From an uncultured bacterium (GTDB lineage Bacteria > Bacteroidota > Bacteroidia > Bacteroidales > Bacteroidaceae), in NCBI GenBank assembly GCA_905216095.1, contig CAJMSQ010000001.1, positions 1 through 64,000 of the forward strand: 64,000 nt of DNA, in the 5' to 3' direction. The position numbers were made by a program, and so were the translations under genes. The notes below the pieces were generated by a model that was not told where the DNA came from, made no database searches, and worked only from the letters and a program-made list of their open reading frames with translations. Positions 9,441 through 25,195 of the stretch are shown piece after piece (within the stretch, counting starts at the first letter, position 1; each line of letters starts with the position of its first letter).

Positions 9441-10525
9441 AATTCTAATTTATTTGCGGTTATATGTGTTAGTATGCTTTCTGCTATGACTTCTCCTAAT
9501 CTCGGAGGTACAGCATTGCCTATATATCTAGATGCTTTGGTAATAGCGACATACTCTTCGTCAGCAAAAAATTTATATGTTTTCGGAAAAGTTTGTATCA
9601 GGGCAGCTTCTCTAATAGAAATAGCCCGGTCTTGGGTCGGGTGCCCGAACCTGCCGTTACCTAAACCGGTACATTGAGTTGTCATAGTAGGGGCAGGTTT
9701 TTCCCATACCATTCTCCCGTAAACACTCCCGAATGATCGCCCTCTATCGGTTTTATGACATCGTAATCGCAAATACTCCGGCCAATCTTTCCAACTACCT
9801 CCATATGGAGTGTGATGAAGGCGTTCAAGATTCAATGACGACAATGCTTTGGCTCTATGCAACGGGTCGTTTTTATCGGTTTCTCCGGCCTTGATCTCGG
9901 GTAAATCACCGATCGTTTCTTTCACTGTTTTATATTCATTAGGCTTATGTGTAGGTTTGATCAATTTGATATCTCCTAATCGCGAAGCCAATAACACCAA
10001 TCGTTTTCTAGTTTGCGGTATTCCATAATCCGGACAATATACAGGTCTTACCCATACATAATACCCTTCATTTTTCAAAAGATTCTCGAAATCGGTTAAA
10101 ACAGGTTTTTCTTTGAATGATAAGATTTGAGCTACATTTTCCATCGTAACGATGTCGGGGTGTATCCCCTTGACTATTCGTCCGAATTCGTATAATAAAT
10201 CGTATTTATTCGGATCTTTCTTTTTGTTTTTGAATGCATACGACGAAAACGGTTGGCAAGGAGCGCATCCTGCCAAAACTCGAATAGAACCTTTTCCGTA
10301 AATTGTCCGTATTTCATCCGGAGAAACCGCCTTAATATCTTTATATATAAATTTCGCTTCGTTATTCGTTTCATAGGCATATTGGCAGGTCGCATCAAGA
10401 TCATACCCTGCAAGGATATTGAATCCCCTGCTTTTCATTCCGAAGCTCAATCCGCCGATACCGCAAAAGAGGTCAATGACTTCTATCGGTGGAAGCGATT
10501 CCTTTTTAATATCATTCTTTTTCAT
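9437..10525 (-). CDS. DNA (cytosine-5-)-methyltransferase
   Basis: A 362-residue C5-methylase with the standard motif order: motif I DLFCGIGGLSFGMKSRGF, motif IV GCAPCQPFSSYAF with the catalytic Cys, motif VI ENVAQ, motif VIII QTRKRLVLLASR, and motif X GNAVPPRLGEVIAESI. The target-recognition region lies at about residues 215-280; the target site cannot be read from it. It starts 25 bp after the MjaI-like endonuclease gene and overlaps the GHKL ATPase gene by 4 bp. A second methylase next to a complete beta-class methylase/endonuclease pair suggests a composite system or a double-protected site. Confidence 0.93.
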   Translation of the reverse strand: MKKNDIKKESLPPIEVIDLFCGIGGLSFGMKSRGFNILAGYDLDATCQYAYETNNEAKFIYKDIKAVSPDEIRTIYGKGSIRVLAGCAPCQPFSSYAFKNKKKDPNKYDLLYEFGRIVKGIHPDIVTMENVAQILSFKEKPVLTDFENLLKNEGYYVWVRPVYCPDYGIPQTRKRLVLLASRLGDIKLIKPTHKPNEYKTVKETIGDLPEIKAGETDKNDPLHRAKALSSLNLERLHHTPYGGSWKDWPEYLRLRCHKTDRGRSFGSVYGRMVWEKPAPTMTTQCTGLGNGRFGHPTQDRAISIREAALIQTFPKTYKFFADEEYVAITKASRYIGNAVPPRLGEVIAESILTHITANKLEL

Positions 10526-10550
10526 AATCCGATTTCAAAACAGAATATAC

Positions 10551-11234
10551 TTAATTCGATAATCGGTCTATTTCAGATCGAATCTGCTCCACGACTTCTT
10601 TATTGGCTATTTCGCCATCCAAACTAAATACTATAAATACATTTCCGCCATATTGCTCTTTGAATGATTCGAAACTCGCTTTCATCCGTTCCGTTAGAGA
10701 ATAACTTCCGAAATTGGCACTTGCAGTTATCGGCTTGATTTGTATGCCTATCGCTTTATCTCCGACTTTTGCAATATAGTCAATATCTCCGGCATGATCC
10801 AATTCGGGATCGCTTTCTTCAAAAGTTATGTCGGAAAATATTTTGGCTAAACCATCGTTGATAACGGACTTTTCTCGTAAATAACCGTCGTAAGTACGAT
10901 TTATGGTAAGATTATAAATATAATCAATACAATCTTGTTCAGTCAACTCTCGAAAAGCGGATTCCCATTCGGGTATAACGACTTCTGTAATTTTAGCATA
11001 TAGCCGTTCTCCTAATTCTTTCAAACTTTCTATCGTTATTTTTGTCGGGTTCTTACCTGCTGTATGGGCGTTATCGAAATACCATGATTGCCACTCTTCG
11101 AAAGAGGATGGTTGGCAATCACGTATAAGAGCCATAACAGCACCGACTTTATTAGGACGGGATAATTGATAAGTTTGGCAAGCATAGTTCAGAACTCGTT
11201 CCTTTTTCCCGAAATTCATTGAATATCTATCCAT
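10551..11234 (-). CDS. MjaI family type II restriction endonuclease
   Basis: A 227-residue protein that I match to the MjaI endonuclease family by its N-terminus, FGKKERVLNYACQTYQLSRP followed by NKVGAVMALI. The prototype MjaI cuts CTAG. A PD-(D/E)xK-like core is plausible at about residues 150-175, with HAGDIDYIAKVGDKAIGIQIK carrying an acidic residue and QIK. It lies 4 bp after the methylase gene in one operon, as expected for a methylase/endonuclease pair. CTAG as target is inferred from the family. Confidence 0.8.
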   Translation of the reverse strand: MDRYSMNFGKKERVLNYACQTYQLSRPNKVGAVMALIRDCQPSSFEEWQSWYFDNAHTAGKNPTKITIESLKELGERLYAKITEVVIPEWESAFRELTEQDCIDYIYNLTINRTYDGYLREKSVINDGLAKIFSDITFEESDPELDHAGDIDYIAKVGDKAIGIQIKPITASANFGSYSLTERMKASFESFKEQYGGNVFIVFSLDGEIANKEVVEQIRSEIDRLSN

Positions 11235-11238
11235 AACA

Positions 11239-12522
11239 TTATAGGTTTATCAGTTTCTCGAATTTGTTTTTATATTTGAAATCAAAAGAATAGTCCACGT
11301 CTGCCAAACCATTTTTCAGCATATGTGCATTTATAAAAGTCTTGTTATCCAAGTATAAGTAACACAACAACAAATCTTTATCATCATACTTTACGGCATC
11401 GTAACGCAAAAAGACCTTCCTGCCTTTTGTCTTTTCCACAAGAAATTCTGTCGCATTAGCATTGACAGATGGCTTTTCTTTGATTCCGAGCAGTCGTATG
11501 GTAAGTCCATTGTTCAATACAATAGTATTTGGTGACAAGATCGTTTTTACAGAAAAATACTCTTCCCGTTCTTTCTTGTCTTTATCTATCCGTGAACCGA
11601 ATTGCAATTTCTTAATCTCGATTTTGCATTCCATTTTGTGCGGGTCACTGAATCTATAAGGCAAAGTTTTCATCTTTTCGTCGATGTCGAAAACAGATCT
11701 ATCGTTGCTGTATCTATATTCTATATTGCCGAACGAAAAGGATGAAGCGACCTTTTCCTCATAGTATTTTTTATAATCGGGATTTATTTCATACCCGATA
11801 GAATTACGTTGCAGATTACGCGCTGCCAAAGCCGTAGTTCCGCTACCCATGAATGGATCGAATACCGTTTCTCCAGCAAAAGAGAACATTTTGATTAAAC
11901 GGTGCGGCAATTCTTCAGGAAAGACAGCAATATGCCCATCTTGTTTTGCTCCGCCAAAATTCCAATGGGAGGCAAAAAAGGTATTCCACTCCTCTTTCGT
12001 CATTGCCGAGCATTTTTTTTGTTCGGCAGTGGGAACTGGTGCTTTGCCTTGCTTTTTGAATATCAGAATGAACTCATAATCGATTTTCAGAATACCGTTC
12101 CGAGGATATGGGAAACTTCCCATAACCGCTCCTCCACCGGTCGTGTTCATTGTGGTCTGCTTTTGCCATATAATCGCTCCCATATAATCCATTCCGAGCG
12201 ACTCGCAAAAACGAATGATTTCTGTTCTTATAGGTATTACTTTATAGCGTCCGTAATAAACGGAGCGAGCGAATTGATCCCCGATATTTACACACAAACG
12301 GCAACCGTCGTGCAATATACGATTGCATTCCGACCATACGGTATTCAAATTATTGATATAACTTTCGTAACTATCATGGAATCCGATTTGACTATCGGTT
12401 CCATAATCTTTTAATTGCCAATACGGTGGCGATGTAATTATCAAATGAACGGATTTATCCGGGATCATAGATAGATTCCGACTATCACCATTAATAAGCG
12501 TATGCGTTGTTTTTATTTCCAT
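11239..12522 (-). CDS. Beta-class DNA methyltransferase fused to an SNase-like domain
   Basis: A 427-residue protein. Residues 1-270 are a site-specific methylase of the beta class: motif IV TSPPYWQLKDYG comes first and the AdoMet motif DPFMGSGTTALAARNL comes later. TSPPYW favours N4-cytosine methylation, which fits the MjaI-type partner. Residues about 310-427 resemble staphylococcal-nuclease (TNase) domains: TIVLNNGLTIRLLGIKEK, then a segment like the SNase beta-barrel, then LYLDNKTFINAHMLKNGLAD. The arginine equivalent to SNase Arg87 appears to be Leu (DLLLCYLYL), so the domain may only bind nucleic acid. The gene overlaps the controller gene by 10 bp. Confidence 0.88.
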   Translation of the reverse strand: MEIKTTHTLINGDSRNLSMIPDKSVHLIITSPPYWQLKDYGTDSQIGFHDSYESYINNLNTVWSECNRILHDGCRLCVNIGDQFARSVYYGRYKVIPIRTEIIRFCESLGMDYMGAIIWQKQTTMNTTGGGAVMGSFPYPRNGILKIDYEFILIFKKQGKAPVPTAEQKKCSAMTKEEWNTFFASHWNFGGAKQDGHIAVFPEELPHRLIKMFSFAGETVFDPFMGSGTTALAARNLQRNSIGYEINPDYKKYYEEKVASSFSFGNIEYRYSNDRSVFDIDEKMKTLPYRFSDPHKMECKIEIKKLQFGSRIDKDKKEREEYFSVKTILSPNTIVLNNGLTIRLLGIKEKPSVNANATEFLVEKTKGRKVFLRYDAVKYDDKDLLLCYLYLDNKTFINAHMLKNGLADVDYSFDFKYKNKFEKLINL

Positions 12523-13980: not shown

Positions 13981-14452
13981 GCTGAAATTCATGATACATT
14001 CTTCCTTTCGGAGAATAATATTTCGGTCGGGTCGTTCATTGCAAGCGCATGGAGCTTTGCGTTCGTGGTCAAGGGAACCTTAGTTGTTTTTATGTTCGTA
14101 CCGGTTTTCCGCCTCCCATCGAAGGGACACGGCTAAACCGCGCGGGGATAAATGTTAAATATATCCGTACCACTTGCACGGGTGGAAATATCTAACTATT
14201 TTTACAGATGAAAAAGCAGAAAAGCGGGGCGGCGGTTTAACCGTCCCGAAAGCCTCAACGTCTAAGACGAGTTATAACAAACTCAATCTTATAACCGCGA
14301 AACTTCAAAACAAATCTAGCTTGTTTCATTTCTGCAATTTCTGCAAGTATTAAAGGTTGTCCGTACTATATTCGGACGTTACGCCCGGACTTTCCGGGAC
14401 TTACAACGGGGTGCTACTAACGCCCCGTTTTTATTTGTGTACATTGCAAGCT
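13981..14452. other. 470-bp intergenic stretch without a recognised gene
   Basis: No coding frame is convincing. It contains small inverted repeats (GTTATAA and TTATAAC near 14270-14305; CGGTT and AACCG near 14240) and ends in a rho-independent terminator on the plus strand. A non-coding transcript is possible, but I recognise no RNA family. Confidence 0.4.
14406..14432 (+). terminator. Rho-independent terminator
   Basis: ACGGGG (14406-14411) pairs with CCCCGT (14423-14428) and runs into a T tract. No plus-strand gene lies directly upstream, which suggests an unannotated RNA or a decayed gene. Confidence 0.65.
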
Positions 14453-14460
14453 GTTTTAAC
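14453..14460. repeat. Left copy of 8-bp target duplication
   Basis: GTTTTAAC directly abuts the left end of the ISL3-type element and recurs at 15884-15891 at its right end. Confidence 0.9.
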
Positions 14461-14474
14461 GGCTCAGTAGAAAA

Positions 14475-15467
14475 TCAGTGGGGATAAGCATAAAGTTTTG
14501 CGATACGGAAAAGGAAGAACTTCTTGTCGGCAACACCTCTGAGGTTGGCCCTGAAGAGTTTGATTTTGGCATTGAATGACTCTGCCATTGCATTGGAAGA
14601 GCGATGGTTGTAGAAGTTTAGTATTTCATCGTAATGCTCGTGGAAAGTCGCGGCAATGACGTTGAATGAATGGAATCCGGCTTCCTCCACCTTATTGTAC
14701 CATTTGGCCATCGACAGCCGGGCTGCGTCTTTGATTGTGTTCTTTGAGAATATCATCCGCAGGGAATGGCAGAGTCCGTATGCCTTCTGTATGTCCGGAT
14801 ATTCCTCAAACAGTATTTCCGCCCGTCGTTTCTGCCTGTCAGTCCATTTGTCGGCAGACTTGAACAGCAGATAACGCGACCGGATGAGCAGTTCCTTGCG
14901 GGTGTCGCCATTGGGGTATCGGAACGGGACATAGTCCTCTCCGTTCAGTTTAGCCTCCTCCATCTCGTCGTTGGCCTGTTGTATGGCATCCCAGCGGTGC
15001 CTGATCCTAAGTTCCTGAACCGCGTCACAGGCAAGCTTCTGGATGTGGAACCGATCGATGACACGACTGGCTTTAGGGAAAACTGTACGGACAATCTTAC
15101 GCATTGAATCAGACAAATCGAGAGTGACTTCCTTGACCGCATCACGTTTGTCATCGTCAATACGCAGCAGCACGGCGATGACATCTTCTGATTTTGTACC
15201 CGCCACGACGGCCACCAGTGACCGCTCTCTTGTACGGGCATCGCGATTGGTGACAAAGGTGTACAACTCGCCATTGGACAGTGAGGATTCATCTATTGCC
15301 AGCCGTGGTCCAATATTGTCGTCAAACAGCAGCCACTCGTCAGCGTGCTCAAGCTGCTCCCAGTCGCGGTAGTTACTCAATGATTCCTTATATTGTTTCT
15401 CGAACGTATGACTGTCTATATGATAGAATTCCTCAAGCGTACGGCAGGTCACCGGGGATGTCTCCAT
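14475..15467 (-). CDS. ISAon1-type transposase, catalytic part
   Basis: A 330-residue DDE transposase of the ISL3 group. LAIDESSLSNGELYTFVTN carries the first acidic residue, ASRVIDRFHIQKLACDA the second with the family's DRFH, and SSNAMAESFNAKIKLFRANL the glutamate region. The frame overlaps the N-terminal ORF by 35 bp in another frame, so a fused product would need programmed frameshifting. The in-frame ATG at 15467 gives a separate start. Confidence 0.9.
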   Translation of the reverse strand: METSPVTCRTLEEFYHIDSHTFEKQYKESLSNYRDWEQLEHADEWLLFDDNIGPRLAIDESSLSNGELYTFVTNRDARTRERSLVAVVAGTKSEDVIAVLLRIDDDKRDAVKEVTLDLSDSMRKIVRTVFPKASRVIDRFHIQKLACDAVQELRIRHRWDAIQQANDEMEEAKLNGEDYVPFRYPNGDTRKELLIRSRYLLFKSADKWTDRQKRRAEILFEEYPDIQKAYGLCHSLRMIFSKNTIKDAARLSMAKWYNKVEEAGFHSFNVIAATFHEHYDEILNFYNHRSSNAMAESFNAKIKLFRANLRGVADKKFFLFRIAKLYAYPH

Positions 15468-15819
15468 ACGTTTCTTTAAAAAAAGCCCCGAATTCTTTGG
15501 AGTAACGTGTGCCTTTGGCTACGACATCCAGATCTATCGGTATGCTGAAACTTTTGCCCGTACGGGTATCTATCCAGCGCCTGCGTCGAATCCGGAGAAT
15601 CACCTTGTGGTCTCTTATAGGAAAATCCGTGACACTGACTGCCTCCATGAAGCCTTTGGAATCAAAATGGACATCTCCGCTTAGCTCAGGATTCATCTTC
15701 TCATCGAGACTTACATGTATCTCCGATTCTGTCTGTTCTATGCCGACGATTGTAAAGTAATCAAGTATCTGCGCGGGCAGAACCATCTGTGCCAGCATCT
15801 GTAAATGTTCGTTTTCCAT
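15433..15819 (-). CDS. ISAon1-type transposase N-terminal region protein
   Basis: A 128-residue protein matching the short first ORF of ISAon1-type elements. It has an ILDYFTIVGIEQTESEIHVS start and RDHKVILRIRRRRWIDTRTG, a basic segment likely to contact DNA ends. It precedes the catalytic ORF and overlaps it by 35 bp. Confidence 0.85.
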   Translation of the reverse strand: MENEHLQMLAQMVLPAQILDYFTIVGIEQTESEIHVSLDEKMNPELSGDVHFDSKGFMEAVSVTDFPIRDHKVILRIRRRRWIDTRTGKSFSIPIDLDVVAKGTRYSKEFGAFFKETYGDIPGDLPYA

Positions 15820-15883
15820 GCCACAAAGTTCGATATAACTTTTGACTATGAAAATTTTATCCCCATTAATTTTCTACTGACCC

Positions 15884-15891
15884 GTTTTAAC
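15884..15891. repeat. Right copy of 8-bp target duplication
   Basis: GTTTTAAC matches 14453-14460 and marks the right boundary of the insertion. Confidence 0.9.
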
Positions 15892-15956
15892 TACTTTACG
15901 CAAAGCGTATCCGTTCTCTCACAATATACACACGGTACAAAGGACAACGCATGGCC

Positions 15957-16046
15957 TCATTTATAGTCGTCGCCGTTGCCGTCCTCCAGCACGCTCATCT
16001 GCTGGATGGCAATGCGATTGATCCTGACGAGGCGTTCGCCTTGCGG
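15957..16046 (-). pseudogene. C-terminal scrap of a KilA-N domain gene
   Basis: Read on the minus strand this gives RINRIAIQQMSVLEDG followed by NGDDYK and a stop. It matches the tail of the KilA-N remnant at 24939 (RLNRIAIQQMSVLED). The rest of the gene is missing; the fragment begins right at the stop codon of the DUF4143 ATPase gene, as if joined by deletion or insertion. Confidence 0.75.
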
Positions 16047-16048
16047 CA

Positions 16049-17347
16049 TTACGACCCAAATATTCCCAAAATGGAATAAAGCGGAAAGTTCTCCATCCAC
16101 TCCTGGTCGCGATAGTCGGACATGGACAGACGCATACCCTTAAGGTTGGGGTTGTCATTGATGAAAGCACGCAGCGACTTTGCCTTGACATTCTCTTCCG
16201 CCTTCACCTCAATGGGAATAATCCTCGACTCCTTCTGCACTATAAAATCAAGTTCACCGTCACTTCTTTCGTTGCTCCAGTAATATATGTGAAGGCTGTC
16301 GAGGGCTACCATCTGCTGCAATACATATTGCTCTGTGAACATTCCCTTGAACTCTTCAAAGATATTGTCGCCTACCAACATCATGCTGGCCGGCGCCTCG
16401 CTCAGTGCCGCCAGCAATCCGAGGTCGAGGAAGAACAATTTGAAAGCCGACATGTCTTCATAGAATTTCAGAGGCAGTCCCGCTTTCTTCACTCTTGACA
16501 CCTTATATAATATGCCGCAGTCCATCAGCCACTGGATAGCCAGCTCGTAATCGGCAGCCCTTGCCCCCTTCTTCATCACGCCATAGACGAATTTCTTGTT
16601 CTCTTTAGACAATTGGGACGGTATGGACCTCATCACCATCATTATCCGCTGCACATTGTTCTGCGGAGCGTGTTTAGATATGTCATTGGTGTATGCGGTG
16701 AGAATCCGCTCCTGTATCTTTCGCACCATTGCAAGGTCTCTCTCCTTGACAAAGCAACTGACAGCTTCGGGCATGCCGCCTACATAATAATATTGCCGGA
16801 TATATTCAATGTATTTGCTTTTCAGTGCCGACAGCAGTTGCCAATCGGGATTTTGCAGCAGGCGGCAAAGCTGTTCGTTGCCTGTTGCCCAAAGAAATTC
16901 CTCATAGTCCAATGGATGGATGTCTATCATATCGACCTTGCCTACGGGGAATGATGTACCGGGATGCAACGCTATTCCGAGCAGAGAGCCGGCAACCATC
17001 ACATGATGTTCGGGAGCGTTTTCGCAAAAATACTTCAAGACTCCCAGTCCTCTGTTCACTTCCTGTATTTCGTCAAGGACGATTAGCGTCTCGCCGGCCT
17101 TTACGTTCACACCAGTCAGTGCCTGAAGAGCCAGCAGGATTCTATCGATGTCATAATCCTTGTCGAACAGTCCCCTTAATCTCTCATCAAGGTCGAAGTT
17201 GGCATAAAGAACATTTTTATATTCGTTTTTGCCAAATTCCTTCATCAGCCAAGTTTTTCCGACTTGCCTTGCACCTCTAAGTATCAAAGGCTTGCGATAA
17301 GCAGAAGCCTTCCATTCAAGGAGTTTTCCGTATGCCTTTCTTTTCAT
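16049..17347 (-). CDS. AAA ATPase with DUF4143 domain
   Basis: A 432-residue AAA_14/DUF4143 protein. Walker A is LRGARQVGKTWLMKEF, Walker B is LIVLDEIQEV, and a sensor-like HHVMVAGSLLG follows. The C-terminal half contains a DUF4143 nuclease-like domain with DGELDFIVQ and PIEVKAEENVKAKSL, similar to PD-(D/E)xK folds. Family members are common, often mobile, and of unsettled function; a DNA-related or toxin-antitoxin-like role has been proposed. It is transcribed away from the GTPase operon from tandem promoter repeats. Its 3' end abuts a KilA-N gene scrap. Confidence 0.88.
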   Translation of the reverse strand: MKRKAYGKLLEWKASAYRKPLILRGARQVGKTWLMKEFGKNEYKNVLYANFDLDERLRGLFDKDYDIDRILLALQALTGVNVKAGETLIVLDEIQEVNRGLGVLKYFCENAPEHHVMVAGSLLGIALHPGTSFPVGKVDMIDIHPLDYEEFLWATGNEQLCRLLQNPDWQLLSALKSKYIEYIRQYYYVGGMPEAVSCFVKERDLAMVRKIQERILTAYTNDISKHAPQNNVQRIMMVMRSIPSQLSKENKKFVYGVMKKGARAADYELAIQWLMDCGILYKVSRVKKAGLPLKFYEDMSAFKLFFLDLGLLAALSEAPASMMLVGDNIFEEFKGMFTEQYVLQQMVALDSLHIYYWSNERSDGELDFIVQKESRIIPIEVKAEENVKAKSLRAFINDNPNLKGMRLSMSDYRDQEWMENFPLYSILGIFGS

Positions 17348-17360
17348 GACTACACTTCTT

Positions 17361-17434
17361 CGGACGAATAATTATCACAAATGTACACTTTTTCGGATGA
17401 ATAACCATCACAAATGTACACTTTTTCGGACGAA
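17361..17434 (-). repeat. 33-bp tandem repeat carrying duplicated -7 promoter boxes
   Basis: The unit CGGACGAATAATTATCACAA plus 13 bp recurs with period 33 at 17361 and 17394, with a partial third copy at 17427. Each full unit contains TACATTTG on the minus strand (17378-17385 and 17411-17418), a -7 match. This places two identical promoter boxes three helical turns apart in front of the DUF4143 ATPase gene. Confidence 0.75.
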
Positions 17435-17577
17435 TAATGGGTTTTATGGTTGAAATCGGCCCGAAAAGAGCCTTTCCGTACAATCTGCCATTAAAGAAAT
17501 AGGTACGTATTAGCAGGCCGCGCCCGCCCAAAATCCTGCTTTCCAATGCATACGGAAAATAAAAAACAATCTTTTCG

Positions 17578-17877: not shown

Positions 17878-18969
17878 ATGCGTAATTTAAATTTTTCAAA
17901 ACTTTTCTGCATATTGGCTTTCATCGGCCTTGCAGGATTCAGTTGTTTTTGGACTGCCGAATCACTTTACATTTGGCAGCCGTCCATCACTCTTGTCGGT
18001 GCATGGCTGATAGCCGTCGTATTCTATGTAGTAGCATCGCTATGCTTTTCGCGATTCATAAAGGGATTTGAGAAATATGGAGATTTTGGACAAGGGTTGT
18101 TTGCGAGCCGCGGTGGGCATCTGTTTTTCGGATTGACGGGACTGCTTATATTTTGGCTGATGGTAAGTCTGCCGACCAATACCCATACGTTGCTGTACCG
18201 TGCATCAATCAAAGAAATCATAAAATCAGACCTGACCCGTACACAGGGATATTTGCAGGGACTGAAAGACAACAACGTGGAGATTAAGAAAATTGAAAAC
18301 AAGTATAGGAGCAAGAAAGATGCCGTAGATGCCATAATACTCAGGCTTATTGCGGAGATTGACAATCCGAGCGCAGTGGGCATAGGACACAGATTTGAAA
18401 CAATTTTGGTTGAGCTTGACCGTACTTTGTTTGAGGGAGACAAAGGTGACAAGAAGATTCAACGGGTTGCCCAAGTCGGTATCACACGTACACAATGGCT
18501 GACAGCCATAAACTATTACCAATCACAGGCATACGAACAGTTGAAACTTTACCGTGCAAAATGCGACAAGGAAATAGAAGAGATTAAACGCACAATGGGC
18601 TCGGATGAGCTTAAAGGTTTGATAGACAACTGCAAGATTGCTTTGGCAGACATAAACAAAATGGACGGGATTGACAATGAAATCATAAAGGCAGCGACGG
18701 ATGACTTGGCTAATGGTTATTCTTACATAAAAGCGAACTCGCAATATATCGTGTTCAAGGATAAAGACAAAACCCGCTATACCCGTGATGGAGCAATGCC
18801 CGAGGCGAAAGAGATGCTGAGTGTTCCTGATGTATGGAAAGACTTTATAACGACGGACAAATACAGTGGTCATGGGTTTATCTGGTGGGTATTCATAGCC
18901 CTTTTGGTAGACCTTGCCGGTTTTGTGTTCTTTAATCTTGCATTCAAAAAAAGTAACAACACCTTTTAA
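17878..18969 (+). CDS. Four-helix membrane protein, first gene of the GTPase operon
   Basis: A 363-residue protein I do not recognise. Three hydrophobic helices lie near the N-terminus (about residues 9-27, 37-57, 82-99) and one near the C-terminus (about 337-357). The segment between (about 105-335) is charged, helical and probably outside the cytoplasmic membrane; it has coiled-coil-like stretches such as IEEIKRTMGSDELKG. It opens the operon after the structured leader and is followed 11 bp later by the GTPase-like gene. It is a candidate envelope anchor or sensor. AT-rich composition fits the rest of the operon. Confidence 0.8.
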   Translation: MRNLNFSKLFCILAFIGLAGFSCFWTAESLYIWQPSITLVGAWLIAVVFYVVASLCFSRFIKGFEKYGDFGQGLFASRGGHLFFGLTGLLIFWLMVSLPTNTHTLLYRASIKEIIKSDLTRTQGYLQGLKDNNVEIKKIENKYRSKKDAVDAIILRLIAEIDNPSAVGIGHRFETILVELDRTLFEGDKGDKKIQRVAQVGITRTQWLTAINYYQSQAYEQLKLYRAKCDKEIEEIKRTMGSDELKGLIDNCKIALADINKMDGIDNEIIKAATDDLANGYSYIKANSQYIVFKDKDKTRYTRDGAMPEAKEMLSVPDVWKDFITTDKYSGHGFIWWVFIALLVDLAGFVFFNLAFKKSNNTF

Positions 18970-18980
18970 TATTAAACAAC

Positions 18981-19880
18981 ATGCCTAATTTTGACAACCT
19001 GATTAATAACGATGTTAATAATCAAAACGGAAGCGACCAGAGACATTCTTCAAATGATGTGATGCATGAGACTTATACAGACGAAGAGTTGCGCGATGTA
19101 AACAACATCACAGTGACCATTCCTGACACACAGACCCCAATCGTTGTATTCTTCGGTTCTCCTGCTTCAGGCAAGACATTAGCTTTATTGCGCATGATTC
19201 GGTATTTGGAGCAGAACAACCATCAGGTTGTTCCCGAAGCCGTGTTCCGTCCACAAACGGATAAGCACTATACAAAAATGTGTTCAGGGCTGAAAGATAT
19301 GGCTTATAGCCAATACGCTCCAGGTGGTAATGATATAATAAGTTTCATGCTCGTCAAGGTGATAGACCAACAGAGCAACAGAACGCTTTGCCAGATACTT
19401 GAAGCACCGGGAGAGCATTATTTTGACGGACGGGCGGAACTCAGTTTTCCAACGTATATCAATGCCATACGCACTTCTCCGAACAGAAAAGTATGGGTTT
19501 TCTTTGTGGAGCAGGATTGGGGCGGCGACCAGAATGTCCGCAATCTTTATGCACAGAAGATTTGCAGTATGCAAGGTCTGATTTCTTCACGTGACAAAGT
19601 TGTTTTCCTGTTTAACAAGTCCGACATGCACCGTCGTGATCAATACAAGAAAAACGGAGAGCCAAACAAACAAGTATTTTTCACGAACATACGGCAACAA
19701 TACCCCGGTATATTTACAAAATATCAAAACACAGGAATAGCCAAATACTTGTATGGAGAATACAACTTTAAAACCGTATGCTTTTCATCAGGAGTGTTCA
19801 ACCGCACGAATGACGGCCGTGAAGTATGGACTCTGGAAAGCGACAGATATTGCCAGGAACTTTGGGATGCCATCAGATAA
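18981..19880 (+). CDS. GTPase-like P-loop protein
   Basis: A 299-residue cytoplasmic protein. Walker A is FFGSPASGKTLALLRM (about residues 57-72). A Walker B/G3-like strand ends in ILEAPGEHYFDG (139-150), where the usual DxxG becomes EAPGE. The guanine-specificity motif is VVFLFNKSD (207-215). This set fits TRAFAC-type or 'double-GTPase'-like NTPases of bacterial conflict and signalling loci, but I cannot fix the subfamily. The first 45 residues are polar and probably disordered. It lies between genes for membrane proteins, which suggests it switches their cytoplasmic domains. Confidence 0.82.
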   Translation: MPNFDNLINNDVNNQNGSDQRHSSNDVMHETYTDEELRDVNNITVTIPDTQTPIVVFFGSPASGKTLALLRMIRYLEQNNHQVVPEAVFRPQTDKHYTKMCSGLKDMAYSQYAPGGNDIISFMLVKVIDQQSNRTLCQILEAPGEHYFDGRAELSFPTYINAIRTSPNRKVWVFFVEQDWGGDQNVRNLYAQKICSMQGLISSRDKVVFLFNKSDMHRRDQYKKNGEPNKQVFFTNIRQQYPGIFTKYQNTGIAKYLYGEYNFKTVCFSSGVFNRTNDGREVWTLESDRYCQELWDAIR

Positions 19881-19896
19881 TTAATTGCATAACTTC

Positions 19897-21915
19897 ATGA
19901 TAAAAACATATATTTACGGTATCCCAAATGGTTTCGACTTCTACGAGAAGGATGCAGAATTCTATGAGTATTTCAAAGGGTTCTACATCGCTTCCCGCAG
20001 GGGGCGGAGGCTTTTGGTAAACCGCCGGGACAATGGAGATACGGTTTATAGCTACCTCCATTATGGGATGAAAGAGATTGAACGCCAACCATTACACTCG
20101 TTCTTTGGAATGTCGATAGTGCTTGAGGACAATCAGTTTTGCCCTAACTTCAAGGTTCTGTTGGAATGGTTTGATTATATCTTTGAGAGGTTGGTTAATG
20201 AACGTCATATAATAAATAAAGATGCGAATGGCATTTTTCATTATGTGATACGCAGATTTGATGAAAACGCAACAGATGTAGAATGGCTGAAAACTAATCT
20301 CCCCAATATTCTCACGCAGTCAGGCCAAACCCAACTGTCGAGATATGACGAGACCTTTCTTGACGGAAGGACAGGTCAAGTTGTCAGTTTCAACCACTCA
20401 GTGAGTGAAGACAGATTATTGTCTACATTCAAGAAATATCGCTGGATTTCCATATCTTCCGATATTACAGATAATGTGGAAGAAGACAAGAGAGATTTGG
20501 GAATCGCCGACTGTACGGAAACCATTGAATTGGACTTTGGCGAATTGAACGAAAAGCTCAACGAGCTGAATCAGCAACTATTGCCGATTGCCGTGGACGT
20601 AAGTAAAGGGAATGCGGATGATTTATCACGTATGAGCAAAGAGGTTGAGGACATAAGCATCAGTATTACAAATTATTTTCCGTCCATCACAGATAAAGAT
20701 GAATCAAAGGGATTCAGGGAGTTAAACAATAAATTTGATTCCTTGAAAAGCAATATAGCGAAGTTATTGGAAAAGTTCCCGTCTGGAAGTGTCTCTCCCC
20801 ATCCGGATACACAATACTGTTTTTCGTGTAAACAGTATAAACCTTTGTCTAGCTTCCATTCTGCGAATGCGACAAAGTGTGTTGAATGTGAAAAAAAGAC
20901 AAAGCTGGTAAGCCAAAACAAAAAATGCAGAAAATGTGGGAAAGAGAAATCCATGGATGAATTTAAGTCCGGAACTGATGTATGCAAAGATTGTAGCACA
21001 TCCCAGCAACAAAACTCATTTACCGGAATCGGAAAGTATGTAACATCGAGGAATGTTATAGGTTTATTATCTTTATTTGCCTTAATTATCTGCTATTCTG
21101 TGGTCATTCCCCAAAGATGCTCCGAGGAGAATCATATTGCGAATAGGCAAACTGGCGAGGCCGTAGATTCTATTGGTAATGGAGATAAAGGAATTGTAGT
21201 CCGCAACGAACTTGACGGATTTATCAACAATATGGATTTCAATGGTTTATATGACTATATAGCAGACAAAGAAGACGCACAAGATTATAAGGTTTATATT
21301 AAAGGCTCTGTCTTTCAGTATTTGTGGAAGATCATAGATACCCTTTCTTCATCTCCGGATGGTGTACAAGATGATATCAAAACTTTTTTCATTAAGAATA
21401 AGGACCTTTTAGATTTCATTGGTTTTGATGATAAGGACAAAAGCAAATGGGAAGAAATAGCAAATGACTATAAAGTACTTTGCGGCATTCTCGCCCAAGA
21501 AAGTGTAACAGAGGCCGATTTGCAAAAAGGAAGAGGTATCTTAGACAGACATACGGATGTGTTCGATCGAGAGTGGCGCACAACATTGGAAGGTAAGCCC
21601 AAGGCCGCCCCTGCTCCTGCACCTGCACCTAATACAAGCGACAATAAAAAAGATGCCACCTTTGTATTGACATATACGAAAGCAAGTGACGGGAAGCCAA
21701 CGACAGTAAATATAAATAAAACTAAAGGTGTTGAAGCAAAGTTGGGAACAACTGTCACCATAAAGTGTAATGATAATGATGGAAAAATCCAAGAGAATGG
21801 CAGAAACGCTCTTACTTTGTTATTGAATGAAGAAAAGGCTTATACAGTCAAGTGCAGGAATGGCATAATTATTACAGTGACAGCCAAAAAGGAGAAAGGA
21901 AGGTTTAATGAATAA
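19897..21915 (+). CDS. Trans-membrane protein with GTPase-partner N-domain and zinc ribbons
   Basis: A 672-residue protein counted from ATG 19897 (a TTG at 19885 is less likely). Residues 1-150 (IKTYIYGIPNGFDFY start) are homologous to the N-terminus of the protein at 23090. A helical segment follows. Residues about 303-370 carry paired zinc-ribbon knuckles: CFSCKQYKPLSSF, CVECEKK, CRKCGKEKSMDEF and CKDC. One transmembrane helix is at about 381-402 (NVIGLLSLFALIICYSVVIP). The last 250 residues should be periplasmic, with an APAPAPAP linker and a small beta domain. I recognise no named family. It is a likely effector or receptor of the preceding GTPase. Confidence 0.8.
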   Translation: MIKTYIYGIPNGFDFYEKDAEFYEYFKGFYIASRRGRRLLVNRRDNGDTVYSYLHYGMKEIERQPLHSFFGMSIVLEDNQFCPNFKVLLEWFDYIFERLVNERHIINKDANGIFHYVIRRFDENATDVEWLKTNLPNILTQSGQTQLSRYDETFLDGRTGQVVSFNHSVSEDRLLSTFKKYRWISISSDITDNVEEDKRDLGIADCTETIELDFGELNEKLNELNQQLLPIAVDVSKGNADDLSRMSKEVEDISISITNYFPSITDKDESKGFRELNNKFDSLKSNIAKLLEKFPSGSVSPHPDTQYCFSCKQYKPLSSFHSANATKCVECEKKTKLVSQNKKCRKCGKEKSMDEFKSGTDVCKDCSTSQQQNSFTGIGKYVTSRNVIGLLSLFALIICYSVVIPQRCSEENHIANRQTGEAVDSIGNGDKGIVVRNELDGFINNMDFNGLYDYIADKEDAQDYKVYIKGSVFQYLWKIIDTLSSSPDGVQDDIKTFFIKNKDLLDFIGFDDKDKSKWEEIANDYKVLCGILAQESVTEADLQKGRGILDRHTDVFDREWRTTLEGKPKAAPAPAPAPNTSDNKKDATFVLTYTKASDGKPTTVNINKTKGVEAKLGTTVTIKCNDNDGKIQENGRNALTLLLNEEKAYTVKCRNGIIITVTAKKEKGRFNE

Positions 21916-22528
21916 GAAAATGAAAACATACATAATGATTGCGATGATGCTATCAGGCATTGGCAGAATATCTGCACAAGACAACGTATTGAGTTTACAG
22001 GGAATAAAAGAACGTATCGCCCATCGTGACTCCATAATGAAAGAATGCAAAAAGAGTGCTTTTATTGATTCTTTAGTCAGTCAAGTGAAAGATTATAATC
22101 TGCTGTCGGAATTGCAGTCAGAAGAGATCAATAATTATTCCACAGAGAATAAGATTCTTCGTGACCAGCTACATCGTTTCATGGTTCTGACATCAAATGA
22201 CACCATAGTCTTTTCCCAAGAGACAAAAGGTATGGATAACATTCCGAGTTGTTTGCAGGAACGTGCGGAATTGGTACGTTGCATTGCGGAATTGAAGATG
22301 ATGATTGAACGAGTAGAAAACAATGCGAAAGGCTTGGAGCAACAACTTGGTAATTCTCCGGTTGCCTATGCTGCAATACGAGAGCAGATAGAGCCGGAAC
22401 TGGATAAGATACAGAAGATGATTCATCGAATCAAGGAAATGAACTTATCATCTCTCTCAGAGGAACAACAGAGGTATTTTCGTCCCGGATTAACAGACCG
22501 ATATAATAGTTTTGAAAAATATTTTTAA
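21908..22528 (+). CDS. Exported coiled-coil protein
   Basis: A 206-residue protein with a signal peptide (MKTYIMIAMMLSGIGRISAQ) and mainly helical mature part with heptad-like segments (KDYNLLSELQSEEINNYSTE; LKMMIERVENNAKGLEQQL). It is probably periplasmic. The start overlaps the previous stop by 8 bp, indicating translational coupling. The next gene starts 2 bp after its stop. No family is recognised. Periplasmic coiled-coil partners fit a complex spanning the inner membrane. Confidence 0.75.
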   Translation: MNKKMKTYIMIAMMLSGIGRISAQDNVLSLQGIKERIAHRDSIMKECKKSAFIDSLVSQVKDYNLLSELQSEEINNYSTENKILRDQLHRFMVLTSNDTIVFSQETKGMDNIPSCLQERAELVRCIAELKMMIERVENNAKGLEQQLGNSPVAYAAIREQIEPELDKIQKMIHRIKEMNLSSLSEEQQRYFRPGLTDRYNSFEKYF

Positions 22529-22530
22529 TT

Positions 22531-23085
22531 ATGAAAAGAATAGTATTTGTTATGGCAAGCATTGCCATATTAGTATGCAGCTCATGCGGTGGAGGTCAGA
22601 AACCTTCGCCAAGAAAAGCTGTTTGGGGTGAGGAAGTTGATACTGCATCTGCAGTGAAGAAAGTGACATTGAGTGGAAAAACCGTATTGGTTCCATTCAA
22701 AAGGTCTGAGAATGGATTGGCAGAAGTACAGATTTCTCTTAACGGAACTCCTTTCAATATGTGGTGGGATACAGGAGCATCCCTTACAAGTATATCCTCT
22801 CTCGAATTTGTCAAACTGATGAAAGAAGGCAAGGTTAATGAAGAAGACAAAATCGGTTCTGTGAAAGCATCATACGCTGACGGCTCTTCTGGCGTAGAGG
22901 ATGTTTATCAAATAAAAGAAATATTCATTCAAGGAAAAGATAACGAGTACCTTATTTTGAATGATGTTGCCGTTTCTGTTTCTGAAAATATCGGTGCTCC
23001 TCTTCTTATCGGGCAGAATGTTATCAGCAACTTACCAAAGCACAAGTTCAATGATGAAGCCGAGGTTATAGAATTTGATAAATAG
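22531..23085 (+). CDS. Retropepsin-like aspartic protease lipoprotein
   Basis: A 184-residue protein with a hydrophobic N-terminus ending in a lipoprotein-like SSCGGG, so likely membrane-anchored on the periplasmic side. The retropepsin active-site loop is MWWDTGASLTSIS (Asp at residue 80), followed by the flap-like VKASYADGSSGVEDVYQI and the family's PLLIGQNVISNLPKHKF. Single-domain members act as homodimers, each monomer giving one Asp. It sits between genes for the two paralogous membrane proteins, which makes a regulated-proteolysis step in a signalling pathway plausible. The substrate is unknown. Confidence 0.88.
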   Translation: MKRIVFVMASIAILVCSSCGGGQKPSPRKAVWGEEVDTASAVKKVTLSGKTVLVPFKRSENGLAEVQISLNGTPFNMWWDTGASLTSISSLEFVKLMKEGKVNEEDKIGSVKASYADGSSGVEDVYQIKEIFIQGKDNEYLILNDVAVSVSENIGAPLLIGQNVISNLPKHKFNDEAEVIEFDK

Positions 23086-23089
23086 AGGC

Positions 23090-24271
23090 ATGAATTTCAA
23101 CTTCTATATAATAGGTACCCCGGAAGGGCGGTATAGTCAATATCCCGAAGACTATACCGCTCCGACACTTGCAGGTCTTCAAGAAAACATGATTGGTGCC
23201 AGACTGGTCATATACAGAGATATGGACTTGATGCATTATGTATATACAGAACGGCTCAACAAAAACAATTTTATTGGTTTCTGCCTGATATTCAACAAAG
23301 CACGGATAACTAAACCGAGAGAATTAATAAAACTGTTTCGGTTTATTATAGAGAAACGTTTGGTTGAGTCTGGTAATATCATTAAATACACGGAAGATGG
23401 TGACTTAAAATTTAATGTCAAGAGTCTAAACAAGTGTATTGACGAATATGACAGACTCAATGGATACATAAATTCTGAGCTTGAAAACAATCTGTATAAA
23501 TATGGTATAGGACCATTGACAACTATTTACAATGGAGTGAAATCAACATACGAGACAGACAATAATGCTTCAGACGGCCAGATTGTATCTTTGACAGATA
23601 GTCATAATAAGGTTGTTGTGAATGAAGACAACGGTATTGAGCATGGGTATATACCGCAAATAATAGCCTCACTTCGGGATGAATGTAGAAAAAGAAGCGC
23701 AGAGATAGAAGGGCTAAAAGAAAGAAATATCCAACTTCACAGGCAAAAGAAACAGTACCGTTACGTCCTTGTATTGATGCTAATGATACTGGGATGCGGT
23801 GCAGGCCTGTTCTTTCTAAATGACAACTTAAAGAATACAAAAGCAAATTTGGAACAGGCAAACCAGACTATCAGTAACAAGGATAATATCATAGTCAGCC
23901 TCAATAATAAGGTCAGCAGCCTGAAAAGCAGTTTGAGCAGTGAAAAAGAAATGCGGGAAAAGGCCGAAAATGATTTTGTTTCATTCAAGAGCTTGCTGAA
24001 CGGCATACAGCCGTTCATCGTAAAGAAGACCTCTTTTGCATTCGATACAGGCTGGCTTTCTTTTGATTACTATGGTTTGAGGGAAGAGACAATAGATTTA
24101 CAGGTAAAGGCTTTCAGCGGGAACGAATCCTACAGTAATTCAAAAAGTATGGATGTGAAGAAAGGATACAACAGTTTTTCCATCTATCTCAGTGACAACC
24201 TGAACCGTTCTACATGGTATTCTTTCGAATTGTTGGTAGACAAAAAGATTGTCGGCGGGGACAGGCATTGA
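23090..24271 (+). CDS. Second trans-membrane protein with the shared N-domain
   Basis: A 393-residue protein counted from ATG 23090, four bases after the protease stop and preceded by AGAGG. Residues 1-150 (FNFYIIGTPEGRYSQYPEDY start, then FIGFCLIFNKARITKP) are homologous to the N-domain of the protein at 19897. A transmembrane helix follows at about 222-245 (VLVLMLMILGCGAGLFF). The periplasmic part starts with a coiled coil and ends in a beta-rich domain (AFDTGWLSFDYYGLREETID). The two proteins share input domains but have different outputs. No named family is recognised. Confidence 0.8.
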   Translation: MNFNFYIIGTPEGRYSQYPEDYTAPTLAGLQENMIGARLVIYRDMDLMHYVYTERLNKNNFIGFCLIFNKARITKPRELIKLFRFIIEKRLVESGNIIKYTEDGDLKFNVKSLNKCIDEYDRLNGYINSELENNLYKYGIGPLTTIYNGVKSTYETDNNASDGQIVSLTDSHNKVVVNEDNGIEHGYIPQIIASLRDECRKRSAEIEGLKERNIQLHRQKKQYRYVLVLMLMILGCGAGLFFLNDNLKNTKANLEQANQTISNKDNIIVSLNNKVSSLKSSLSSEKEMREKAENDFVSFKSLLNGIQPFIVKKTSFAFDTGWLSFDYYGLREETIDLQVKAFSGNESYSNSKSMDVKKGYNSFSIYLSDNLNRSTWYSFELLVDKKIVGGDRH

Positions 24272-24350
24272 AGCTGGCTTGAGTATAATTTTAGCAGTGG
24301 GTTAAAAAACAATAGAAGTTGTGCTCGACACGTATTAAGGGTATGAAGTA

Positions 24351-24872
24351 ATGAAAAGAGTATTTCTTATAGTTTGTTGCGTGATGACTGTTTTGTGCAG
24401 CAGTCATGCGCAGCATTTAGAGTTTATGGGCATTTCCATTGATGGCAGTATCGAAGCTTTTGATGCGAAGTTGAAAGCAAAAGGATTTATAAATAGTAAA
24501 GACTTCGTAAATACAAAAAACGAAAAGTGGTATGATGGCAGATTTGCTGGAGATGATGTCGTGTTGAATGTTCGTAGGACAAGGACAAATTTAGTTTATG
24601 CCACAACTGTTGTTCAATATTTTGAAGCATTGGATGATGTGAAAGCGCAGTGGGAATACTATGTTTCTGTCATAGAGGATAAATACAAAGACAGAATAGT
24701 CAATAAAAAGATAGAAAGTACCGACAACATTCGTTATGAAATGGAGTTGGGGGATATTGTTGTTGATTATAGAAAGTCAGATTATAAAGATTATAAATAC
24801 CATCTTCTTCTTATGTATTTTGACAGAAAAAACACCGTTATAAATAAAAAAATGAATGAAGAGGATATTTAG
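24351..24872 (+). CDS. Exported small protein at the end of the GTPase operon
   Basis: A 173-residue protein with a signal peptide cleaved near SSHAQ. The mature part begins HLEFMGISIDGSIEAFDAKL and is predicted alpha/beta. Similar small exported proteins of unknown function occur in Bacteroides relatives. It starts 80 bp after the previous gene and may be a separate transcript. Its composition is AT-rich, like the operon before it. Confidence 0.7.
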   Translation: MKRVFLIVCCVMTVLCSSHAQHLEFMGISIDGSIEAFDAKLKAKGFINSKDFVNTKNEKWYDGRFAGDDVVLNVRRTRTNLVYATTVVQYFEALDDVKAQWEYYVSVIEDKYKDRIVNKKIESTDNIRYEMELGDIVVDYRKSDYKDYKYHLLLMYFDRKNTVINKKMNEEDI

Positions 24873-24938: not shown

Positions 24939-25195
24939 TCATTTCAGCAACTTCCTGTCGCCGCTTTTGTCGTCTTCCAGCACACTCATCTGCTGGATGG
25001 CAATGCGGTTCAGCCTGATGGCGTCGGTATGTATGCGGTAGTTTATCTTCGACAGTTCGCGTTTGGCCGGCCAGCCAAGCTGAGCCTGCTCTTCGGCTTT
25101 CAGGTGCTGGAATTCATGTATCAGATACACATTAAACTCGGGGCTTATCCACATGGCAAACTCAAAAGCGATGTGTATCCTCCGCCCTTTCCGTT
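24939..25195 (-). pseudogene. Truncated KilA-N domain gene
   Basis: The minus strand encodes IAFEFAMWISPEFNVYLIHE followed by FQHLKAEEQAQLGWPAKREL and RIHTDAIRLNRIAIQQMSVL, the hallmark of KilA-N domain proteins. The N-terminal half is absent. Upstream, GKGGGY is in another frame, which suggests a small indel at about 25172. A second scrap of the same gene type lies at 15957. KilA-N proteins are common on phages and mobile islands. Confidence 0.8.

What the first reader, a model, noticed from the sequence alone, without database searches (positions are those of the whole stretch)
17878..24872. Seven-gene GTPase/aspartic-protease envelope operon of unknown function
Genes are adjacent or overlapping and AT-rich. 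They encode a four-helix membrane protein, a GTPase-like P-loop protein (GSPASGKT, EAPGE, NKSD), two membrane proteins that share a homologous cytoplasmic N-domain but have different periplasmic domains (one with zinc ribbons), a periplasmic coiled-coil protein, a lipoprotein retropepsin-like protease (DTGAS) and one more exported protein. A cytoplasmic switch with paired receivers and a periplasmic protease suggests trans-envelope signalling by regulated proteolysis, perhaps a defence or stress system. Motifs are seen; the pathway is inferred.
Basis: partly seen in the sequence, partly recalled or inferred. Interest (0 to 1): 0.88.

Follow-up and report, generated by a model that had tools for sequence, protein, structure and literature searches.

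The report
Membrane-spanning GTPase switch with periplasmic protease
A gene cluster of Bacteroidales-type bacteria encodes what looks like an undescribed molecular switch that joins changeable heads outside the inner membrane to a GTP-driven switch inside the cell and to a virus-type protease between the membranes, and it may serve defence or the response to envelope stress.

Summary
The cluster is real and conserved; six of its seven genes form the unit. g1 (four-helix membrane protein) and g2 (GTPase) are adjacent in 35 of 35 loci, mostly followed by receiver 1 (g3), a retropepsin-like protease (g5, 26 of 35) and receiver 2 (g6). g4 occurs in 3 of 35, g7 only in the window. The GTPase fold is supported by a model. 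By profile comparison it lies nearer DO-GTPases (97.0%) than seven G-protein families (at most 31%; Ffh 73% over a short stretch), though Pfam's DO-GTPase models miss it. The receivers' N-domains are homologous (98.4%). In 12 pairs of loci the receivers' periplasmic parts mostly diverge far more than GTPase, g1 and protease. A sister cassette (g1, GTPase, receiver) exists in seven other Bacteroidota genomes, three of them beside RHS-repeat genes. I infer a trans-envelope surveillance switch in which receiver clustering dimerises and so activates the tethered retropepsin. Defence versus envelope stress is undecided: flanks show no defence enrichment, yet one relative lies on an integrase-bearing element. 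New variant of a known kind.

The parts
17878..18969 (+). g1: membrane protein, three N-terminal helices, about 220-residue soluble (inferred periplasmic) domain, fourth helix near the C-terminus
   Evidence: ORF; helices by hydropathy in the close relative L001 and by alignment; directly before g2 in 35 of 35 loci; homologous to the membrane protein of the sister cassette, 97.7%
18166..18189 (+). SLPTNTHT motif at the end of helix 3 of g1
   Evidence: S[LM]PTNTHT in 27 of 35 g1 proteins
18910..18912 (+). Asp345 codon inside the fourth membrane helix of g1
   Evidence: invariant in the 19 aligned g1 proteins; the equivalent Asp is invariant in 15 that include L161 of the sister cassette
18981..19880 (+). 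g2: DO-GTPase-like GTPase
   Evidence: AlphaFold2 model; structure matches; 97.0% profile match to seven DO-GTPases
19155..19178 (+). P-loop GSPASGKT
   Evidence: G59, G64, K65, T66 invariant in 17
19398..19415 (+). LEAPGE, Walker B glutamate
   Evidence: L140 E141 P143 G144 E145 invariant in 17; LExPGE in 34 of 35 main GTPases, L061 lacks it
19614..19625 (+). NKSD base-recognition motif
   Evidence: N212 and D215 invariant in 17; NKxD in 33 of 35 main GTPases, L041 and L061 lack it
19885..21915 (+). g3: receiver 1; N-domain (about residues 1-190), zinc ribbons, one membrane helix, variable periplasmic part
   Evidence: ORF; N-domain homologous to that of g6
20815..20997 (+). double zinc ribbon of g3, before the membrane helix, hence inferred cytoplasmic
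   Evidence: weak DZR_2 match, residues 311-371, below the cut-off; two CxxC-CxxC units
21055..21111 (+). membrane helix of g3
   Evidence: hydropathy maximum
21908..22528 (+). g4: exported coiled-coil protein, optional
   Evidence: 3 of 35 loci and L183 by reading
22531..23085 (+). g5: retropepsin-like aspartic protease with lipoprotein-type signal
   Evidence: Pfam gag-asp_proteas over the cut-off; 26 of 35 loci
22768..22782 (+). catalytic DTGAS, one copy per chain
   Evidence: D[TS]G in 25 of 26 family members; L001 has DTA
23075..24271 (+). g6: receiver 2; likely starts at 23090; N-domain, 118-residue helix through the membrane, periplasmic beta sandwich
   Evidence: model pLDDT 87.5, pTM 0.52
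23762..23818 (+). membrane helix of g6
   Evidence: hydropathy maximum
24011..24268 (+). periplasmic Ig-like beta sandwich of g6
24351..24872 (+). g7: exported protein, not part of the conserved unit
   Evidence: no relative found in the other 34 loci

Best explanation
A trans-envelope surveillance switch built round a DO-GTPase-like GTPase. Two receivers carry homologous cytoplasmic N-domains and, across the inner membrane, variable periplasmic parts. A periplasmic head, or the g1 membrane protein, senses an invader or damage in the envelope. The change passes along the long helix to the N-domains, which act as regulators or effectors of the GTPase. GTP-bound GTPase clusters receivers and g1. 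The retropepsin has one catalytic motif per chain, so it should need to dimerise; tethered to a membrane, it would be switched on by that clustering and would then cut a periplasmic target (candidates: a receiver's own linker or head, g4, or the invader). Shown: gene set, order, GTPase fold (model), N-domain homology, protease family, constant core against variable heads. Inferred: topology, complex formation, direction of signalling, dimerisation by clustering, substrate, and a conflict role rather than housekeeping.
For: g1 and g2 are adjacent on the same strand in 35 of 35 loci with gaps of -124 to 71 nt. Patchy distribution: 31 of 399 genomes of the seed's family, seed and one weak broken match included; 4 of 393 of the order, seed included; 1 of 395 of the phylum, the seed itself. 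Operon GC is below that of its flanks in 33 of 35 loci. GTPase: model and GTPase structure matches; 97.0% to a profile of seven DO-GTPases over 187 columns, 96.9% without the sister-cassette member. N-domains of g3 and g6: 98.4%. In 12 non-overlapping pairs of loci (GTPase identity 52-92%) the g3 periplasmic part is less alike than its N-domain in 10 of 11 (one tie), the g6 part in 7 of 9 (one tie, one reverse); g1 and, in the 7 pairs that have it, g5 stay near the GTPase value except in the pair L001/window. Receiver-2 modules differ: DUF805, FGE-sulfatase, DUF3298, BACON, beta sandwich. Sister cassette in seven genomes, three beside RHS-repeat genes. L183 carries the operon with three Phage_integrase genes and MobC_2.
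Against: No interface between GTPase and N-domain could be predicted. Flanks are not enriched in defence families (65 PADLOC families hit among 150 flank proteins, 114 among 138 control proteins). The protease is absent from 6 of 35 loci and 3 more are cut by contig ends, so it is not indispensable; L001 has DTA in place of DTG. No match on 72,556 plasmid or 50,697 phage records. No Pfam DO-GTPase hit in 17 members; against the seven DO-GTPases one by one the score runs from 4% to 85%, and single Ffh proteins reach 71%. The sister GTPases also match an EngA profile at 91.7%. The sister receivers' N-domain is not distinguishable from noise (10.8%; best of 166 unrelated proteins 10.7%). The pair L001/window shows no faster change of the g6 head (0.45 and 0.45).
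Confidence: 0.45

Rival explanations
1. Envelope-stress module: the system senses osmotic, wall or membrane stress and the retropepsin remodels periplasmic proteins. No invader is involved; variable heads reflect different surface structures of each strain.
Against: Housekeeping stress systems are usually widespread (general knowledge); this one is in 31 of 399 genomes of the family, with heads that change between closely similar cores, low GC and, once, an integrase-bearing element.
Confidence: 0.33
2. Assembly or export switch: the GTPase, like Rag/Gtr or MglA, drives assembly or placing of an envelope machine or the release of a large exported protein, with the protease as maturation enzyme.
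Against: I noticed no shared large cargo gene next to the main family, but did not test it systematically and the listing was cut; the structure rows lie close together and a shared fold shows no function.
Confidence: 0.15
3. A loose genomic-island cluster without a joint function.
For: Lies beside a restriction-modification group and a transposase in the window; g4 and g7 are not general.
Against: g1 and g2 adjacent in 35 of 35 loci; the order is kept in L008, whose GTPase is 31% identical to the window's.
Confidence: 0.02

Closest known systems
DO-GTPase/GAP1 GTPase-centric conflict systems (Kaur et al. 2020, PMC7159879; passages read)
   Same: GTPase with a conserved Walker B glutamate, profile-similar to Pfam DO-GTPases; constant core plus variable components; FGE-sulfatase-type (FGS) domains; membrane-linked members
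   Different: No Pfam DO-GTPase hit; receivers do not match the one GAP1-N2 protein tested (at most 0.2%); one GTPase in 33 of 35 loci; a retropepsin and the g1 protein. The words retropepsin, aspartyl, aspartic and RHS do not occur in that paper's main text
YcjX stress GTPase
   Different: No receivers, g1 or retropepsin known to me in its operon (recalled, not searched)
RloABC operon of Pseudomonas aeruginosa (PMC12239564; abstract and discussion read)
   Same: Exported retropepsin-like enzyme with a membrane partner and a cytoplasmic nucleotide-using partner
   Different: ATP-grasp protein instead of GTPase; RloA cleaves polyglutamate; no paired receivers described there. No sequence or structure comparison with RloA was made here
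L072 locus: DO-GTPase locus with subtilase, four-helix protein, coiled-coil and lipoprotein-like genes
   Same: Parallel layout: membrane protein, DO-GTPase, receiver-like protein, exported coiled-coil protein, protease
   Different: Its membrane protein and N-domain are not detectably homologous to g1 and g3 (0.7% and 20%); subtilase instead of retropepsin

Membership tests
DO-GTPase family | GTPase fold with P-loop and base-recognition motif | tested here: met
DO-GTPase family | conserved glutamate in Walker B | tested here: met
   E141 invariant in 17; feature as given in PMC7159879
DO-GTPase family | recognised by the Pfam models DO-GTPase1 or DO-GTPase2 | tested here: not met
   neither model is among the families shown for 17 members at E up to 5, 25 of 29 families shown, nor for the window's protein at E up to 1; so filed only as a relative
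DO-GTPase family | closer to DO-GTPases than to other GTPase families by profile comparison | tested here: met
   97.0% over 187 columns, against EngA 31%, Era 24%, MnmE 10%, Obg, YchF, Arf-like and HflX below 5%, Ffh 73% over 63 columns; single-sequence scores scatter
GAP1-centred conflict system | GAP1 protein with GAP1-N1 or GAP1-N2 domain | tested here: inconclusive
   one Pfam-confirmed GAP1-N2 protein: 0.1-0.2%; the 1035-residue neighbour of two DO-GTPases in L163, assumed to be GAP1: 0.2-0.5%; no GAP1-N1 profile was compared
GAP1-centred conflict system | constant core with highly variable attached modules | tested here: met
Retropepsin-like aspartic peptidase | single D-T/S-G motif per chain in a gag-asp_proteas domain | tested here: met
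   Pfam over the cut-off; 25 of 26 with D[TS]G
Retropepsin-like aspartic peptidase | active as a homodimer | not testable with these tools
   single chains only
Known anti-phage defence system (PADLOC) | match to a described defence protein | tested here: not met
   only hit among g1-g7 at E up to 0.1 is mad8 for g2, E 0.0037 over 36 residues
Longin/roadblock N-domain | fold match to longin or roadblock structures | tested here: inconclusive
   predicted order strand-strand-helix-three strands-two helices, compared by eye with recalled folds; structure lists were filled by the C-terminal domain

The most novel reading that the evidence does not exclude
An old Bacteroidota switch of three parts (g1 membrane protein, DO-GTPase-like GTPase, coiled-coil receiver) serves as a bacterial trans-envelope immune receptor. 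Hypervariable, exchangeable periplasmic heads recognise invaders or rival toxins from outside and, through a Rag-like GTPase switch, unleash a membrane-tethered retropepsin by induced dimerisation: receptor, G protein and protease in one bacterial operon.
Probability: 0.25. Interest if true: 0.92.

Novelty: new variant of a known kind. Interest (0 to 1): 0.72.

Why it matters
To my knowledge few bacterial signalling systems join a cytoplasmic GTPase to a periplasmic protease. If right, this gives a testable example of a G-protein switch that works across an envelope, suggests what receivers with interchangeable heads do, and ties the little-studied DO-GTPases to a defined protease output. The three-part sister cassette also gives a minimal form to study.

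Tried and rejected
Direct family assignment: Pfam, NCBIfam and PADLOC gave nothing convincing for g1, g2, g3, g4, g6, g7. PspA_IM30 for g4 (E 0.00023, below the cut-off) was rejected as a coiled-coil match.

Defence-island test: 150 of 212 flank proteins and 138 of 257 control proteins were scanned (lists); no enrichment. The tool reports families, not proteins, so the comparison is rough, and my ORF picking goes by length only.

Homology of the receivers to GAP1-N2, to the L072 N-domain and to the sister cassette's N-domain was tried: 0.2%, 20% and 10.8% at best. The last aligns over 177 columns and exceeds seven control profiles (at most 0.3%), but the best of 166 unrelated single proteins reached 10.7%, so it is not claimed. 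L161's receiver has no other homolog in the protein search or in 92 genomes of its family.

PDB sequence search gave nothing for g5 at E up to 0.01 and for g2 weak, mostly P-loop matches, best FtsY with E 0.0011. The window's GTPase on plasmids and phages: none; viral contigs: none with the single protein, one with the profile.

Rows dropped: G533 (weak match with two stops); four g1 matches with E of 1e-4 to 8e-4; the four loci with fewer than two receiver ORFs (L050, L054, L055, L068) from the pair comparison. L095-L099 came in as weak DO-GTPase hits but the two that I printed, L096 and L099, read as Ffh and the five served as controls. One search read the wrong strand for some loci and was replaced. 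An early sister-to-DO-GTPase score (99.9%) shared one sequence between the two sides; without it gives 98.7%.
Full report
What is there. To the left, on the - strand, lie a restriction-modification group (HATPase, C5 methylase, MjaI-type endonuclease, N6/N4 methylase), an acetyltransferase, an ISL3 transposase and an AAA_14/DUF4143 ATPase that matches the PADLOC candidate PDC-S01. No tRNA was found in the window and no whole genome is held for it, so the organism is not told; relatives are Bacteroidales.

Conservation. A genome scan gave one named locus, L001, a Prevotellaceae MAG, with the same six genes in the same order and no g7. With GTPase profiles, 4 of 393 genomes of the order (profile A1), 31 of 399 of the family (A2) and 1 of 395 of the phylum, the seed (A2), had a match. 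I fetched 33 further regions and searched all ORFs of 35 loci, window included. L049 and L068 are two places in one genome. g1 was found in 35 of 35, always just before the GTPase on the same strand (gap -124 to 71 nt). Receiver 1 was found in 34 (the contig of L055 ends before it) and 36 further N-domain ORFs were found in all. The protease was found in 26, absent in six (L044, L045, L048, L056, L058, L067), and three loci end before its place (L050, L055, L068). g4 occurs in 3, g7 in 1. Second, shorter GTPases follow in L040 and L041.

GTPase motifs. LExPGE is present in 34 of the 35 main GTPases (L061 reads otherwise), NKxD in 33 (L041 and L061 differ); the two second copies lack LExPGE.

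The pieces of the receivers. Profile comparison shows that the N-domains of g3 and g6 are homologous (98.4%, E 4.6e-15). Receiver-2 proteins carry different C-terminal modules: DUF805 (L044, L049, L051), FGE-sulfatase (L051, L067), DUF3298 (L051), BACON (L008); of nine receivers scanned two had no Pfam match. In L051 five ORFs with N-domain similarity follow the protease; two of them may be halves of one gene. I compared 12 non-overlapping pairs of loci chosen greedily by GTPase identity (52-92%), 31 loci being usable. For example L049/L051: GTPase 0.89, g1 0.91, g5 0.85, g3 N-domain 0.83 but g3 periplasmic part 0.38 and g6 periplasmic part 0.33; L044/L047: GTPase 0.82, g6 periplasmic part 0.12. 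The g3 part was below its N-domain in 10 of 11 pairs (one tie, L042/L043), the g6 part in 7 of 9 (one tie, L001/window; one reverse, L056/L057); three pairs lacked one or both parts. g5 could be compared in 7 pairs and stays near the GTPase value in 6; in L001/window g1 (0.57) and g5 (0.55) lag behind the GTPase (0.74), so the window's own pair is not the clearest example. Identities are per length of the shorter piece, and unrelated pieces give roughly 0.15-0.25 by my estimate. Thus GTPase, g1 and protease form a constant core and the heads vary.

They are cytoplasmic if the N-domain is.

Where it comes from. The GTPase profile was compared with GTPases taken from Bacteroidota genomes. A profile of seven DO-GTPases gave 97.0% over 187 columns; controls gave 31% (EngA), 24% (Era), 10% (MnmE), below 5% (Obg, YchF, Arf-like, HflX) and 73% over 63 columns (Ffh). 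Without the member that belongs to the sister cassette the value is 96.9%, and without L071 too it is 90.3% over 119 columns. One by one the seven score 4% to 85%, the five Ffh proteins 7% to 71%, and the others at most 25%, so the case rests on the pooled profile. Pfam's DO-GTPase models were not among the hits shown for 17 members. I therefore call it DO-GTPase-like, not a DO-GTPase.

A sister cassette. One of the DO-GTPases, in L161 (a Balneola sp. MAG by the name attached to P0216), lies between a four-helix protein and a coiled-coil protein. The four-helix protein is homologous to g1 (96.0%, E 4e-9; 12 control membrane proteins at most 1.1%). A g1 profile that includes it found 12 of 385 genomes of the phylum: the seed, L161, six with E below 1e-9 and four weak ones that I did not follow. 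All six carry the trio of membrane protein, P-loop GTPase and a receiver with one predicted membrane helix; L161's receiver shows no such helix by reading. As profiles, the seven membrane proteins match g1 at 97.7% and the seven GTPases match g2 at 94.1%; the sister GTPases match DO-GTPases at 98.7% without the shared member, but also EngA at 91.7%. Of four of them scanned, all match Pfam DO-GTPase1 and one is over the cut-off. In three of the seven the trio directly follows a gene with RHS repeats. The receivers' N-domains aligned along 177 columns at 10.8%, no better than the best of 166 unrelated proteins (10.7%).

Mobility and neighbours. Operon GC is below the flanks in 33 of 35 loci (means 39.3% and 47.5%). 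One contig of the viral collection, L183, holds the six-gene unit with a DTGAS protease; on one side lie three Phage_integrase genes, a MobC_2 gene and a Methylase_S fragment, on the other a Helicase_C gene. Two further genes there look like an AbiE pair to me from memory; Pfam did not confirm it. Against a defence-island reading, flank and control proteins hit 65 and 114 PADLOC families, and no plasmid or phage record matched the GTPase.

How it may work. g1 has conserved polar residues in or at the membrane: S22, T26, S29, the S-x-PTNTH stretch and D345 in helix 4; several are invariant in an alignment that includes L161. They could form a sensing or ion path; this is inference. The protease has one catalytic motif per chain (D[TS]G in 25 of 26; L001 reads DTA). 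Retropepsins work as dimers (general knowledge); the exported RloA enzymes of Pseudomonas aeruginosa have a dimeric retropepsin arrangement with the active site at the interface (PMC12239564, abstract and discussion read). A lipoprotein-type signal fits a strict pattern in 20 of 26 (the window's own VCSSC falls outside the pattern but reads as such). A tethered half-enzyme next to receivers suggests activation by clustering under GTPase control. Trigger, interface and substrate are unknown.

What is known. Kaur and co-workers described DO-GTPase/GAP1 conflict systems with constant cores and variable effectors (PMC7159879; passages read). The PSP study places a DO-GTPase family protein in membrane stress, citing the YcjX structure (PMC11237479; passages). 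Searches of the open library for retropepsin with GTPase, Bacteroidetes and operon, for aspartyl protease with Bacteroides, GTPase, anti-phage and transmembrane (listing seen), for double-GTPase with transmembrane and Bacteroid, for DO-GTPase alone and for GAP1-N1 with GTPase showed no paper on this system; most subscription papers and all preprints are outside that library.

Verdict. A well-conserved trans-envelope GTPase system for which I found no description, related to but outside the recognised DO-GTPase/GAP1 set: a new variant of a known kind. Conflict is my first reading at 0.45, envelope stress second at 0.33.

Noticed in passing
window 7785-12522 (-): AT-rich (37.7% GC) restriction-modification group: HATPase, C5 cytosine methylase, MjaI-type endonuclease, N6/N4 methylase with a nuclease-like tail.
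   Followed up: partly
window 16049-17347 (-): AAA_14/DUF4143 ATPase, strong match to PADLOC candidate PDC-S01 (E 5.3e-181), just before the operon on the other strand.
   Followed up: no
window 15966-16027 and 24957-25018: 62-nt direct repeat at 85% bracketing the ATPase and the operon. On the - strand both read like the tail of one protein family (KilA-N by memory), so the pair may be remnants of a duplicated gene at an insertion hot spot.
   Followed up: partly
window 17351-17449: Three tandem 33-nt units (70-100% alike) upstream of the operon.
   Followed up: no
window 14448-15896: ISL3-type transposase with 40-nt inverted repeats at 83% on either side.
   Followed up: no
L178 4132-10563, L179 53-6192, L180 169-4868: RHS-repeat genes directly upstream of the sister cassette in three genomes: RHS proteins, often polymorphic toxins (general knowledge), tied to a GTPase cassette.
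   Followed up: partly
L072 28-16808: Long DO-GTPase locus with subtilase, a four-helix protein, receiver-like, coiled-coil and lipoprotein-like genes: a parallel layout with a serine protease.
   Followed up: partly
L051 150-6935: Five ORFs with N-domain similarity after the protease, with DUF805, DUF3298, FGE-sulfatase and unknown tails; two may be halves of one gene.
   Followed up: partly
L058 11396-12274: One ORF begins like the protease signal and continues as the second half of receiver 2, as if a deletion had removed the protease domain and the receiver's N-domain.
   Followed up: no
L052 3854-5896: A long repeat protein (TPR-like by eye) with a C-terminal retropepsin-like domain (DTGAS) downstream of the operon's own protease and receiver 2.
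   Followed up: no
L183 18751-20495: Two genes that look like an AbiEi/AbiEii pair from memory, on the integrase-bearing contig with the operon; Pfam gave only a weak MarR match.
   Followed up: partly
L049 and L068: Two places in one genome with equal GTPase scores: a duplicated operon or assembly duplicate.
   Followed up: no
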